This document shows positions 13,771 to 21,626 of a stretch of DNA of 34,207 bases, one piece after another (within the stretch, counting starts at the first letter, position 1; each line of letters begins with the position of its first letter). Source of the DNA: Candidatus Heimdallarchaeota archaeon (GTDB taxonomy: Archaea; Asgardarchaeota; Heimdallarchaeia; Heimdallarchaeales; Heimdallarchaeaceae); assembly GCA_021399395.1 (NCBI GenBank), contig JAAFKJ010000070.1, positions 1-34,207 of the forward strand. The letters are read 5' to 3'. Under the pieces are notes generated by a model, which worked only from the letters and a program-made list of their open reading frames with translations, searched no databases and was not told the origin of the DNA. A program made the translations under genes and the position numbers.

Positions 13771-14190
13771 ATGACAATCATCCAATATTTCGATGACATG
13801 GAAGTAAAAGACTTTCTGTGGCTATCTTCAGCTTTTGTAATTCTATTTGTAGCTGGATTTGTGATAGGATTTTTACGAATAGAAGATTTCTTTTGGATGA
13901 TTATTCTAGCAGCTGTTATTGCAGGGTTATTTGTTATATTTGCATCTATGTATATTATCATTAATTGGAAAGAATGGAAAAAAGAAACAGAATTATTAGT
14001 TGAACTCCCAAGTTTCCCTGAACCTGATTTCTGTGATATGTGTAGTAAAGAACTAGAGGGTGGGGAGAAAAAAACTGATGGTGAATTCCTAGTTATCATC
14101 TGTCCTTATTGTGAAGCTGAAAACATTGTATCAAGTGAAACAAAGATACAAGAAGTAGAGAAAACAATTGAGGAAGAAGAAACTGAATGA
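13771..14190 (+). CDS. small two-helix membrane protein with cytosolic zinc ribbon
   Basis: The 139-residue protein has two membrane helices (about residues 17-35 and 42-64), then a soluble part with a split zinc ribbon, FCDMCSKEL and IICPYCEAEN (Cys88, 91, 111, 114), and an acidic tail rich in Glu. No named family is recognised. Its stop overlaps the start of the next gene (ATGA), so it is translated together with the first RING protein and is a good candidate partner for it. Confidence 0.78.
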   Translation: MTIIQYFDDMEVKDFLWLSSAFVILFVAGFVIGFLRIEDFFWMIILAAVIAGLFVIFASMYIIINWKEWKKETELLVELPSFPEPDFCDMCSKELEGGEKKTDGEFLVIICPYCEAENIVSSETKIQEVEKTIEEEETE

Positions 14191-15431
14191 ACATAAGAAA
14201 ATTACAGCCAGTCAAGCTTCTTGTTCTATCTTACTGTATATCATTAATAGCATTAGCAGTCAGAGATTTTAGGTATATTTATGTAGATCAAATTGCGTAT
14301 TTCTTCGTAATTTTCCTTACCCCTATAATAATTACAGCTGTTACGATTGTTGCTTATGAATTGAAGAGAAGAAGACTGATTCACTTTGAAAGGATATTCA
14401 CTGAGTATAGCGTTCTTGAATTAATTGGAGTGATTCTTCTAGAAGGAGCTTACATTTTTGGTTTGTTTATGGCTTGGCATGGTGTTTCATTACTAACAAC
14501 CTCTAACTTTGTTCTTTTTGTAATCATTGCTATTTTCTCTAATTCATTATTTGTCGTTTATCTTGTTTTATGGATCAATCATAGACTATCTAAAAGACTA
14601 GAGACGATAGAAACGATAAACAGAGTTGCAACTGTAGTCAAAAAGAAAAAGAAAAAAATTGAATATGATAAAATAACTGAACTACTTGGATTCAGTTCAG
14701 ATGTATCATTTAATGAGATAGAAGGTGGTTACACTTTCATAGTTCCAGAAGACCACATTTATGCTGATTTTTTTGAAAGAATTAAGGTAGTTTATGATGA
14801 AGTATTCAAAGGAATAAGTATAGTTTTGAAATTAAAAAGTGACTCTCTTCTTTCGCTAGATATCAGAAAACGTGATTCAATATTCTCAAATCAAAGAAAA
14901 GAATTTTCCATTTCTCCTCTAAGTAATGTTTATTCTCTTAATTCTCAAACACCCGAGATCTGGGAAAATCTCCTCTCTGATCCTATCTTTCAACAAAATT
15001 TGTTACTTCTTAGACCATACTTCGAACATTTTTCTCTTAAAGGTGAATATGTTGAAGCACTGGTATATTCTGACACTACAATAGTCAAATTAATTGATTG
15101 GGTTATGGAGATGAATCCTTCAATGGAGCTTATGTCAAAGATCATTGATGCATCTGATGCTGACATACTCCTTTGTTACAACTGTCAAGATCCATTTGAC
15201 CCACTGGAAGAAACATGTACTAATTGTGGTAGTGCTAGACCAAGATGTATAATATGTTTTCAAGATTTAAAACCAGAAGAAGAAGATGATGTAGTTATGC
15301 TGCCTTGCTGTGAGATTTATGCTCACAGAGATCATATTATGACTTGGTTAAGAAAGAAGTCTATATGCCCAAATTGTCACAGTAGTTTAACCAGATGGAT
15401 GAATCAGACTAAATTGAATAGAGGGTTTTGA
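14187..15431 (+). CDS. four-helix membrane protein with C-terminal zinc ribbon plus RING-like domain (RING copy 1)
   Basis: The 414 residues carry about four membrane helices before residue 135, a soluble middle domain (about 150-325), then two metal modules. A ribbon C330YNC333 ... C344TNC347 is followed seven residues on by C354IIC357 ... LPC374C375EIYAH380RDH383 ... ICPNC (394, 397). The IYAHRDHIMTWL...CPNC segment matches the H/C-x2-C/H-x3-WL...CPxC second half of RING fingers, with His where RING usually has its sixth Cys. RING domains recruit E2 enzymes in ubiquitin-type modification; Asgard archaea are known to encode such systems. A membrane-bound E3 ligase is the natural guess, not shown. 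It is a paralogue of the protein at 15479. Confidence 0.82.
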   Translation: MNIRKLQPVKLLVLSYCISLIALAVRDFRYIYVDQIAYFFVIFLTPIIITAVTIVAYELKRRRLIHFERIFTEYSVLELIGVILLEGAYIFGLFMAWHGVSLLTTSNFVLFVIIAIFSNSLFVVYLVLWINHRLSKRLETIETINRVATVVKKKKKKIEYDKITELLGFSSDVSFNEIEGGYTFIVPEDHIYADFFERIKVVYDEVFKGISIVLKLKSDSLLSLDIRKRDSIFSNQRKEFSISPLSNVYSLNSQTPEIWENLLSDPIFQQNLLLLRPYFEHFSLKGEYVEALVYSDTTIVKLIDWVMEMNPSMELMSKIIDASDADILLCYNCQDPFDPLEETCTNCGSARPRCIICFQDLKPEEEDDVVMLPCCEIYAHRDHIMTWLRKKSICPNCHSSLTRWMNQTKLNRGF

Positions 15432-15478
15432 AATGTTTATTAACTGCCATGTAAAATTAACTATGGGAGAACACGTAA

Positions 15479-16492
15479 ATGAATATTGAGGATTTGGGAT
15501 ATTTTGCTTTTCTTGTAATTATCTTATTCATAGCTATTCCAATTAGTAGAGCTAGAAAGAAGAAGAAAAAAGAACGTTCACGACAGAGATATTATTCTAC
15601 CTATAATCCTCAGGCAGCTCATAGAGATTACAATGCTCAAGCAGGTCGTTCTCAATTTTATAGCGCTCCTGCGTATCAGGCAGGACAGCAACCAAATCAA
15701 CAACACATACAGCGCACAATGACTCCCAGAAGTACTTTTGACATGGAAAACATACTAAAAGATCTTAGATTAACAAATGCTCCTGTGATTCAACGAGCAA
15801 TGAATGGTTTCCAAGTAGAAACAGCTGAAGATCATCGATACACTTTATTCTCGGAAATAAAAGTAATCGAACAACAGAATAATTTTCTGAAAATTTATGG
15901 AACCTTACGTAAAATAATCCCTTCAAGTTTAGAAATGCGAAGGAGAAGTTCGATGGTAGTTCAATCACCAAACGAAATACAAATACCTCAATTAGATAAT
16001 TTCTATTCTATTTCCTCAGAACATCAAGATTTGTGGTTTGAAATCTTACATGACCATGGATTAATCCATCGAATTGAGAATCTAAAAGACCATCTAGAAT
16101 TTTTGTATATTAACGAGGACCATATGGAAGCAATTGTGGATAAAGATTTTGCAGTGAGACCTGTGTTAGATTTAACAGTATCATTACATTCCAGCTTAAG
16201 GGGAATAGCTGGAGATTCCTCAAGCTATCAAGTTGAAGAACTAAGATGCTACAACTGTGATGATCCGTTTGACCCACTAGAAGAAGAATGTGATAAATGT
16301 GGAGCTCAAAGACCTAGATGTATGATATGTTATCTTGATCTCAAACCATCTGACAAACAAGAAGTTGTTAAACATCCTTGTTGTCAAATTTACTCTCATA
16401 AAGAGCATATTCTTGTATGGTTGAAGAAGAACAAAAAATGTCCAAATTGCCATACAGATTTAAGCCACTGGGCGAAGAAACTAATGCTTTGA
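15479..16492 (+). CDS. single-pass membrane protein with C-terminal zinc ribbon plus RING-like domain (RING copy 2)
   Basis: The 337 residues have one N-terminal membrane helix (FAFLVIILFIAIPI), a Lys/Arg cluster, a Gln/Tyr/Ala-rich low-complexity linker (about 40-85), then a middle domain and metal modules collinear with RING copy 1. Ligands are Cys257, 260, 271, 274 (ribbon) and Cys281, 284, 301, 302, His307, His310, Cys321, 324 (RING-like), with the same spacings as copy 1. The shared core reads CYNC-DPFDPLEE...RPRC-IC and PCC-IY-H--HI--WL. The two therefore arose by duplication and differ mainly in their membrane part. A GGGAG about ten bases before the ATG may be its ribosome site. Likely a second membrane E3-like protein; substrate and E2 unknown. 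Confidence 0.82.
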   Translation: MNIEDLGYFAFLVIILFIAIPISRARKKKKKERSRQRYYSTYNPQAAHRDYNAQAGRSQFYSAPAYQAGQQPNQQHIQRTMTPRSTFDMENILKDLRLTNAPVIQRAMNGFQVETAEDHRYTLFSEIKVIEQQNNFLKIYGTLRKIIPSSLEMRRRSSMVVQSPNEIQIPQLDNFYSISSEHQDLWFEILHDHGLIHRIENLKDHLEFLYINEDHMEAIVDKDFAVRPVLDLTVSLHSSLRGIAGDSSSYQVEELRCYNCDDPFDPLEEECDKCGAQRPRCMICYLDLKPSDKQEVVKHPCCQIYSHKEHILVWLKKNKKCPNCHTDLSHWAKKLML

Positions 16493-16590
16493 GGATTACT
16501 GATTTAATTTCAGATAGAATACATTCTTCGTTTATTTTTTGAATATGTTTAAATTCAATATACTCAAATTATTCTTAATAAAGTGATTTT

Positions 16591-16992
16591 ATGGGTAAGA
16601 AAAAAAAAGAACTAAAGAAAAAGGCAAGAAAAAGTTTGGATTTAATAGGTAGAACAAGACTATATTTCTTTAGAGGACATAACTCTTGGCTTTATCTTCC
16701 AATATGGTTTGTGAATATTCTAATTGTTTTCTACAAACTCCTTCTGGAAGATTTGTACTTCCTCCCAGAATGGGTGTCATTTTGGAATTTTGCTATAATC
16801 TTCTCTGTAATTTATTTCCCTCTCGCAGTTTTAGTAGGACGGCTTGATTACTATAGGGGTACTTACAAAGGGGAAGCTGAAGTGGGTATGGCAGTAAATC
16901 CAATCTGGATAAGGCAATTCAAAGAACTGGAAGGATTGAAAACTGAATTAGCTGAAATAAAGGAATTGCTAGCAAAAAGTGGTAAAGATTAG
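16591..16992 (+). CDS. small two-helix membrane protein, unknown
   Basis: The 133 residues begin with a strongly basic, lysine-rich stretch (MGKKKKELKKKARK). Two membrane helices follow (LYLPIWFVNILIVFYKLLL and WNFAIIFSVIYFPLAVLVG), then a short cytosolic coiled-coil-like tail (FKELEGLKTELAEIKELLAK). I recognise no family. It follows the second RING protein by 98 bases in the same direction with its own AT-rich upstream region, so membership in the RING cluster rests on position only. Confidence 0.7.
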   Translation: MGKKKKELKKKARKSLDLIGRTRLYFFRGHNSWLYLPIWFVNILIVFYKLLLEDLYFLPEWVSFWNFAIIFSVIYFPLAVLVGRLDYYRGTYKGEAEVGMAVNPIWIRQFKELEGLKTELAEIKELLAKSGKD

Positions 16993-21134: not shown

Positions 21135-21626
21135 GTGACCGACACAAACCCCAATATTGTGCTTCTGCAAGTTTCTGTAGTGGTAGCTTTAATTGGCTTT
21201 CTGGATGCTCTTTACCTATACTATATGGAGTTAACACAAAATTTCAAGTGCTTAATAAATACAGGAGTCTTTCAGTGTGAAACAGTAAATCAAAGTGTAT
21301 ATGCAAAAATACTAGGAATCCCAGTGAGTTTGTTAGGGTGTTTGTTTTATTTGGCTTTCATTGCATTTTTATTTTTAGCAATTTATACTGATAATCAATA
21401 CTGGCTAGGTTTCTTTCTACCTGCAGCTTCCATTGTGGGATTTCTTTTCTCAATTTACCTAACTGTTATTGAGATTTTTGTAATAAAACTCTTCTGCGAG
21501 TTTTGTGTGCTATCCGCAATATGTTCAGTCGTTTTAATTGTGTTGATATTTGTTGCTAAATCGAAGAATTTTCCAAGCTTATTCGCTAAACTCGATTTCT
21601 GGAACATGTTCAAAAAAGAAACTTAG
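21135..21626 (+). CDS. vitamin K epoxide reductase (VKOR) family membrane protein
   Basis: The 163 residues contain four to five membrane helices and both cysteine pairs of VKOR homologues. The loop pair is Cys39 and Cys48 (FKCLINTGVFQCETV) and the active-site pair is C121EFC124 in the fourth helix, with SVYAKILGIPVSLLG between. Prokaryotic VKORs oxidise a Trx-like partner and pass electrons to quinones, making disulfides outside the cytoplasm. This one is a stand-alone VKOR without a fused thioredoxin domain. The membrane thioredoxin at 5132 and the TlpA-like protein at the right end are possible partners. The start is GTG, chosen for the TATA box 25 bases upstream. Confidence 0.93.
   Translation: MTDTNPNIVLLQVSVVVALIGFLDALYLYYMELTQNFKCLINTGVFQCETVNQSVYAKILGIPVSLLGCLFYLAFIAFLFLAIYTDNQYWLGFFLPAASIVGFLFSIYLTVIEIFVIKLFCEFCVLSAICSVVLIVLIFVAKSKNFPSLFAKLDFWNMFKKET

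What the first reader, a model, noticed from the sequence alone, without database searches (positions are those of the whole stretch)
13771..16992. Membrane cluster with two paralogous zinc-ribbon + RING-like proteins
Two neighbouring genes encode different membrane anchors fused to the same C-terminal pair of metal modules, with identical ligand spacing (CxxC-x10-CxxC, then CxxC ... PCCxIYxHxxH ... WL ... CPxC). The first is translationally coupled to a small two-helix zinc-ribbon protein. Membrane-anchored RING-type E3 ligases are a eukaryotic hallmark (ER and endosomal quality control). A duplicated, clustered version in an archaeon could be a membrane-protein ubiquitination or sorting system not yet described. 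The E3 role is inference; what is seen is the ligand pattern and topology.
Basis: partly seen in the sequence, partly recalled or inferred. Interest (0 to 1): 0.8.

Follow-up and report, generated by a model that had tools for sequence, protein, structure and literature searches.

The report
Heimdallarchaeal membrane-anchored zinc-ribbon–RING proteins
Two neighbouring genes in an Asgard (Heimdallarchaeota) genome encode membrane-anchored proteins ending in a zinc ribbon plus a RING domain of the kind that recruits ubiquitin enzymes, which suggests that these archaea, close relatives of eukaryotes, already carry a family of membrane-bound ubiquitin-ligase-like proteins.

Summary
p2 (14187-15431, 4 TM) and p3 (15479-16492, 1 TM) share a middle domain, a zinc ribbon and a RING with identical ligand spacing (35% identity over 231 aa). 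p1 overlaps p2 by ATGA. p4 carries no zinc motif and is rarely conserved. The window is from an Asgard genome whose closest named relatives are Ca. Heimdallarchaeota. AlphaFold2 models of p2 and p3 each match E2-bound RING E3s (RNF165, TM 0.8), and over ribbon+RING the C-termini of SEA/GATOR2 and IFT-A subunits; the middle domain resembles TtfA. Site-2 ligation is non-canonical: an invariant Cys-Cys replaces C-x-H. The E2-contact residues (I/V, W, P) are invariant, but the R/K 'linchpin' is His. The genome encodes ubiquitin, E1, E2s and a JAB protease, none of them beside this cluster. Over 228 Asgard genomes the module and E2 occur together (162 both, 55 neither, 11 discordant), whereas a zinc-ribbon control is in all 228. 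Best reading: a genus-level family of membrane-anchored RING E3-like proteins facing the cytosol, perhaps working as paralogue pairs. Main rival: non-catalytic assembly RINGs, as in SEA/GATOR2. E3 activity itself is untested.

The parts
13771..14190 (+). p1: small protein, two TM helices plus a cytosolic zinc ribbon (C88xxC91-x19-C111xxC114)
   Evidence: its stop overlaps the start of p2 (ATGA); orthologue beside the RING genes in about 15 congeneric genomes
14187..15431 (+). p2: membrane RING protein, 414 aa
   Evidence: AF2 model mean pLDDT 80
14208..14582 (+). p2 membrane anchor, four TM helices (about residues 8-132), N and C termini cytosolic by the positive-inside rule
14664..15143 (+). 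p2 middle domain (residues 160-319), TtfA-like fold
   Evidence: 6t84, E 2.2e-4, prob 1.00
15174..15227 (+). p2 zinc ribbon C330xxC333-x10-C344xxC347
15246..15377 (+). p2 RING C354xxC357-x16-C374C375-x4-H380xxH383-x3-W387...C394PNC397
15479..16492 (+). p3: membrane RING protein, 337 aa, paralogue of p2
   Evidence: AF2 model mean pLDDT 83
15485..15553 (+). p3 single TM helix (about residues 3-25), followed by a Lys/Arg-rich cytosolic stretch
15728..16216 (+). p3 middle domain (residues 84-246), TtfA-like fold
   Evidence: 6t84, E 8.3e-5, prob 1.00
16247..16300 (+). p3 zinc ribbon C257xxC260-x10-C271xxC274
   Evidence: invariant in 39 homologues
16319..16450 (+). p3 RING C281xxC284-x16-C301C302-x4-H307xxH310-x3-W314...C321PNC324
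   Evidence: all ligands, Y305, W314 and P322 invariant in 39 homologues
16591..16992 (+). p4: two-TM protein without a metal motif; lineage-specific neighbour, probably not part of the system
   Evidence: homologues in only two other genomes of the fetched set

Best explanation
p2 and p3 are two paralogous, membrane-anchored, RING-type ubiquitin-ligase-like proteins of a Heimdallarchaeota lineage. TM helices (four in p2, one in p3) hold a TtfA-like middle domain and a C-terminal zinc-ribbon-RING unit at the cytosolic face (predicted). The RING binds an E2~ubiquitin through the conserved I/V, W and P surface (inferred). The middle domain and TM segments, perhaps with the co-translated ribbon protein p1, would choose membrane or membrane-near substrates (inferred). 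p2 and p3 may pair through their RINGs (speculative). Ubiquitin put on membrane proteins could feed the UEV/Vps28-type ESCRT-I protein encoded next to a ubiquitin and an E1 elsewhere in the genome (inferred from gene content only).
For: RING fold in two separate models: RNF165 bound to UbcH5b~Ub, TMt 0.80 and 0.79; RNF38, prob 1.00. Best PDB profile matches over the RING are E3 ligases: ARK2C, RNF165, Arkadia, RNF38, E about 1e-7; AMFR, HRD1 and synoviolin also match. E2-contact positions: I/V at C1+2 in 39/39, W314 39/39, P322 39/39. In the active C. subterraneum E3 srfp, I30Q abolished and W58A impaired ubiquitylation, and srfp also has shifted site-2 ligands with an extra Cys (PMC5654768). 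The genome's own E2s carry the reciprocal loops YPFKPP/WTPA and YPMKPP/WSPA. Ubiquitin, E1, E2 and JAB are present. Module and E2 co-occur over 228 Asgard genomes: 162 both, 55 neither, 4 and 7 discordant, Fisher p=6e-40; 1.5e-10 without the large E2-less family; 1.3e-12 without the two largest families. A zinc-ribbon control family is in 228/228. Positive-inside rule puts the RINGs in the cytosol.
Against: The linchpin residue after the last Cys, R/K in most active RINGs, is His in p2/p3 and K in only 3 of 39 homologues. The canonical H4 ligand is absent. The conserved E2-facing hydrophobic and Trp positions are also kept in WDR24, whose RING belongs to a complex where RINGs are described as structural, so they do not prove catalysis. 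No ubiquitin, E1 or E2 gene was recognised at this locus. The co-occurrence is for the ribbon-RING module in general; the full architecture is known only from this genus and a few genomes of its order. Related genomes are not independent, so Fisher p-values overstate the evidence.
Confidence: 0.57

Rival explanations
1. The ribbon-RING units are non-catalytic assembly modules: paralogous RINGs heterodimerise to build a membrane-bound scaffold, as Sea2/Sea4 and Sea3/Sea4 do in SEA/GATOR2. Ubiquitin is not involved directly.
For: SEA/GATOR2 chains are the best structural matches that cover ribbon plus RING (9oti_C, 9h5k_G, 8adl_G; prob 1.00), and WDR24, MIOS and an IFT-A subunit match the sequence profile over both modules. 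SEA RINGs heterodimerise and play a structural role, with a ubiquitin role undetermined (PMC9646525). Two or three different paralogues sit in tandem in many congeneric genomes. The linchpin is lost.
Against: It does not explain why the module is absent together with E2 across the phylum. p2/p3 lack the beta-propeller and alpha-solenoid of SEA proteins. p2 is missing or reduced in several species that keep p3, so an obligate p2-p3 pair is not general.
Confidence: 0.27
2. Membrane receptors or adaptors in which the RING recruits E2 or ubiquitylated proteins but the ligase step is done by another RING, for example the multi-TM RING of the ubiquitin locus (C179). p2/p3 would then be E2-docking partners, as in BRCA1-BARD1-like asymmetric pairs (analogy from general knowledge).
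For: E2-contact residues kept while the linchpin is lost; at least 11 RING proteins in the same genome, most of the others with R/K after the last Cys.
Against: No interaction data; no shared locus with the operon RING in this genome.
Confidence: 0.12
3. Zinc-binding membrane proteins of unrelated function, for example redox, metal or lipid handling through the TtfA-like domain, with the RING as a stable zinc fold only.
For: The middle domain's nearest solved fold is TtfA, a membrane-associated lipid-transport factor; members with anchor and middle domain but no RING exist.
Against: Invariant E2-facing residues and co-occurrence with E2.
Confidence: 0.04

Closest known systems
Caldiarchaeum subterraneum srfp (small RING finger protein, archaeal E3; PMC5654768)
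   Same: RING with shifted site-2 ligands and an extra Cys; conserved E2-contact I and W; active with archaeal E1/E2
   Different: srfp is a small protein in a ubiquitin operon with a linchpin Arg (R69); p2/p3 are larger, membrane-anchored, with zinc ribbon and middle domain, outside any ubiquitin operon, and with His at the linchpin
C-terminal zinc-binding and RING region of SEA/GATOR2 subunits (Sea2/WDR24, Sea3/WDR59, Sea4/MIOS) and of an IFT-A subunit
   Same: Ribbon followed by RING; in WDR24 the same C-x4-H-x2-H-x3-WL core; best structural matches covering both modules
   Different: Eukaryotic proteins are soluble coatomer-like subunits with beta-propeller and alpha-solenoid; their RINGs serve assembly
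RING-H2 E3 ligases of the RNF165/Arkadia/RNF38 type
   Same: RING fold (TMt about 0.8 for RNF165), E2-contact residues, closest sequence profile match over the RING alone
   Different: Canonical C-x-H site-2 ligands and basic linchpin; no zinc ribbon of this kind
Eukaryotic membrane RING E3s such as HRD1 and AMFR/gp78
   Same: TM anchor plus cytosolic RING; weaker profile matches
   Different: No shared TM or middle domains found; likely the same working plan rather than orthology
TtfA (PDB 6t84), mycobacterial TMM transport factor
   Same: Fold of the middle domain (E 8e-5 and 2e-4, prob 1.00) and an N-terminal membrane anchor
   Different: No RING; about 8-10% identity; remote similarity only

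Membership tests
RING-type E3 ubiquitin ligase | RING (cross-brace) fold | tested here: met
   AF2 models of p2 and p3 superpose on E2-bound RNF165 (TMt 0.79-0.80, rmsd 1.9) and on RNF38. Coordinates and zinc geometry could not be inspected directly.
RING-type E3 ubiquitin ligase | Canonical eight ligands in RING-H2 order, including C3-x-H4 | tested here: not met
   H4 position is I/V/S/T/E/A in 39 of 39; an invariant Cys directly before C3 replaces it. The active archaeal srfp also departs from the canon at this place.
RING-type E3 ubiquitin ligase | E2-contact residues: hydrophobic at C1+2, Trp on the helix, Pro after C7 | tested here: met
   I/V 39/39, W 39/39, P 39/39
RING-type E3 ubiquitin ligase | Basic linchpin residue after C8 | tested here: not met
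   His in p2 and p3; K in 3 of 39 homologues
RING-type E3 ubiquitin ligase | Ubiquitin, E1 and E2 in the same genome | tested here: met
RING-type E3 ubiquitin ligase | E2 binding and stimulated ubiquitin transfer | not testable with these tools
   needs biochemistry
SEA/GATOR2 C-terminal ribbon-RING | Zinc-binding module directly followed by RING | tested here: met
SEA/GATOR2 subunit | Beta-propeller plus alpha-solenoid upstream | tested here: not met
   Models show TM helices plus a TtfA-like alpha/beta domain
SEA/GATOR2 C-terminal ribbon-RING | RING-RING heterodimer | not tested
   no complex prediction available
Archaeal ubiquitin-operon srfp | Small RING protein encoded in the ubiquitin operon | tested here: not met
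   No ubiquitin, E1 or E2 gene recognised beside p2/p3 in the window or in syntenic congeneric loci
Membrane-anchored RING protein (architecture class) | TM segment(s) with cytosolic RING | tested here: met
   Hydropathy, AF2 helices and positive-inside rule; prediction only

The most novel reading that the evidence does not exclude
The Asgard ribbon-RING unit with shifted site-2 ligands, here mounted on membrane anchors as an E3-like family, is the prokaryotic source of the C-terminal ribbon-RING of eukaryotic SEA/GATOR2 and IFT-A coat-like subunits. A ubiquitin-linked membrane module of Asgard archaea would then have become an assembly module of eukaryotic membrane machinery.
Probability: 0.22. 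Interest if true: 0.85.

Novelty: new variant of a known kind. Interest (0 to 1): 0.62.

Why it matters
Asgard archaea are known to have ubiquitin operons and ESCRT genes, but in the papers found here the E3 side is represented almost only by small operon RINGs. A genus-level family of membrane-anchored, cytosol-facing RING proteins, whose module is absent where E2 is absent across the phylum, would place membrane-protein ubiquitylation before eukaryotes and give testable candidates that could feed the archaeal ubiquitin-ESCRT pathway. The match to SEA/GATOR2 and IFT-A C-termini opens a second question: where the non-catalytic RINGs of eukaryotic coat-like complexes came from.

Tried and rejected
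Operon or neighbourhood link to E1/E2/ubiquitin at this locus: rejected; flanks are threonine synthase, luciferase-like oxidoreductases, cupin and methyltransferases. p4 as part of the system: rejected. A known Pfam family for the middle domain: none found; only the fold search gave TtfA. Plain zinc-ribbon explanation: rejected as sufficient, since ribbon proteins are in all 228 genomes while the ribbon-RING follows E2. A wide alignment (A1) could not be used for the named-genome scan because no stretch was conserved enough; a narrower one (A3) worked and gave Heimdallarchaeota titles. Literature searches for membrane RING proteins or SEA-type RINGs in Asgard archaea found no description; subscription papers are not in the library. 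The nearness of one family member to a ubiquitin locus (L131, G004) is suggestive, but in other genomes E2 and family members lie on different contigs, so it was not used as evidence.
Full report
What is there. The window is contig C161 of a 2.8 Mb, 201-contig genome. p1 (13771-14190) is a two-TM protein with a zinc ribbon; its stop overlaps the start of p2 (ATGA). p2 (14187-15431) has four TM helices and p3 (15479-16492) one; both end in a zinc ribbon CxxC-x10-CxxC and, six residues on, a RING CxxC-x16-CC-x4-HxxH-x3-W...CPNC. The spacing is identical in both, and no shuffle of either tail reproduced even a loose version (0 of 200,000 each). The two align over 231 residues at 35% identity, so they share more than the metal modules. 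p4 (16591-16992) has no metal site and only two homologues among the fetched loci, so it is a neighbour rather than a member. p3 against its nearest orthologue has dN 0.11 with near-saturated dS, and p1 0.085 against 0.86.

Who carries it. A scan of named genomes with an alignment of close p3 orthologues returned 15 loci, 14 titled Candidatus Heimdallarchaeota and one Asgard group archaeon. In congeneric genomes the order threonine synthase, one or two luciferase-like oxidoreductases, p1, RING genes, cupin is kept, with one to three tandem RING genes (gene names by position and length relative to the window). The p2 orthologues in the tree form their own group (support 94/71), and the p3 orthologues of several species group together, so the duplication is older than these species. 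p2 is absent or only a remnant in some species that keep p3 (for example G002, where a 42-residue match is broken by four stops). The same genome has a second tandem pair on contig C53 and several other RING proteins: eleven zf-RING_2 hits in all.

Structure. AlphaFold2 gave mean pLDDT 83 for p3 and 80 for p2. Against the PDB, both models found the same things: TtfA (6t84) for the middle domain (E 8e-5 and 2e-4, prob 1.00); SEA/GATOR2 chains (prob 1.00) and IFT-A (prob 0.98 and 0.93) over ribbon plus RING; RNF38 and RNF165 for the RING, the latter in complex with UbcH5b~Ub, TMt 0.80 and 0.79. A sequence profile of the module alone finds E3 ligases first (ARK2C, RNF165, Arkadia, RNF38, E about 1e-7), then an IFT-A chain and WDR24 over ribbon and RING (E about 3e-6 to 6e-6), then HRD1-type, AMFR and MIOS chains. 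The RING fold is therefore well supported; zinc geometry was not inspected.

Ligands and surfaces. In 39 homologues all four ribbon Cys, both RING Cys pairs, the adjacent C301-C302, Y305, H307, H310, W314, C321, P322 and C324 are invariant. The usual H4 position is never a ligand; the Cys just before C3 takes its place. Other RINGs of this genome have CPxC at that point, and WDR24 has CxxC before the same x4-H-x2-H-x3-WL. The C. subterraneum E3 srfp was described with C3 and H4 out of register by two residues and an extra Cys, and is an active E3. So a shifted site 2 is compatible with activity. The E2-facing positions are kept: I/V at C1+2, W314, P322. The linchpin after C8 is His in p2 and p3 and basic in only 3 of 39, which argues for weak or assisted activity.

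Ubiquitin context. The genome has ubiquitin on C180 beside an E1 and a UEV-Vps28 fusion, and on C179 a second locus with E1, ubiquitin-like protein, a multi-TM RING protein, JAB protease and E2; another E2 is on C18. The E2s keep the loop residues that meet RINGs: YPFKPP with WTPA, and YPMKPP with WSPA. None of this lies near p2/p3.

Co-occurrence. Over 228 genomes of the phylum the module model hits 166 and E2 hits 169; 162 have both, 55 neither, 4 only the module (two incomplete genomes, two marginal E-values) and 7 only E2. Fisher p is 6e-40, 1.5e-10 without the large E2-less family f28, and 1.3e-12 without f19 and f28. The absences include whole families (f21, f22, f24, f28) and single genomes in mixed families (f25: G173 lacks both, G174 has both). 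Double zinc ribbons (PF12773) are in all 228, so this is not a general lack of zinc proteins. Limits: at most about nine or ten candidates per genome were scored, genomes are related, and the test concerns the module rather than the full p2/p3 architecture, which is known from this genus and a few genomes of the order.

Topology. p3 has an acidic, very short N-terminus and a Lys/Arg-rich stretch right after its helix; p2 has basic even-numbered loops and a basic stretch after TM4. Both put the middle domain and RING in the cytosol, where E2 would be. This is prediction.

Reading. The most economical account is a family of membrane-anchored RING E3-like proteins. Fold, cytosolic side and E2-facing residues are shown by computation; linkage to ubiquitin is supported by co-occurrence; catalysis, substrates and pairing are inferred. 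The main rival takes the SEA/GATOR2 match seriously: there, RINGs of paralogous subunits heterodimerise, play a structural role, and a ubiquitin-related function is undetermined (PMC9646525). Tandem paralogues and the lost linchpin fit that too, but joint absence with E2 does not. Combinations of the two are possible.

Novelty. The library searched holds no description that I found of membrane-anchored RING families in Asgard archaea or of SEA-type ribbon-RINGs there, but many subscription papers are missing from it. RING E3s in archaea are known (srfp), so this is a new variant of a known kind.

Noticed in passing
G000:C180, L037:5257-8113: E1 and ubiquitin (ending KGGS) next to a 470-aa protein that fuses a UEV/E2-like domain to a Vps28-type region.
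   Followed up: partly
G000:C179, L036:9199-10329: The RING protein of the E1/ubiquitin-like/JAB/E2 locus is itself a multi-TM membrane protein with a Ser/Thr/Arg-rich linker; the same organisation occurs in G004 (L131:779-1885).
   Followed up: partly
G000:C172, L035:4628-6703: A 691-aa protein, seemingly built of winged-helix-like repeats, ends in a ribbon-RING with the same spacing; hits in open frames of similar length occur in other families of the phylum.
   Followed up: no
G000:C95, L065:470-2119: Superfamily 1 helicase with a C-terminal RING in an open frame of about 1012 aa; similar long frames with a RING hit occur in other genomes of the class.
   Followed up: no
L113:3115-3897, L114:3383-4165, L115:537-1304, L116:3028-3558: Paralogues with the same middle domain but no ribbon and no RING, three of them with a membrane anchor: the anchor plus middle domain exists as a unit of its own.
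   Followed up: partly
L131:5682-6716 (G004:C114): A p2/p3-family member lies about 2.5 kb from the E2/JAB/RING ubiquitin locus, with a gelsolin-like protein between them; in G019:C72 an E2 and a family member are also about 2.5 kb apart.
   Followed up: partly
family f28 of the phylum (47 genomes): A whole family lacks E2 in every genome and all but lacks the ribbon-RING module, although many of its genomes are over 90% complete.
   Followed up: partly
window 13771-14190: p1 is strongly conserved between species, above all its cytosolic tail (CDxCxKELEGGEKKTDGEF...CPHCxAENIVS), which suggests a tight partner.
   Followed up: partly
window 21135-21626: VKOR-family membrane protein (PF07884, E 3e-23), a disulphide-forming enzyme type.
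   Followed up: no
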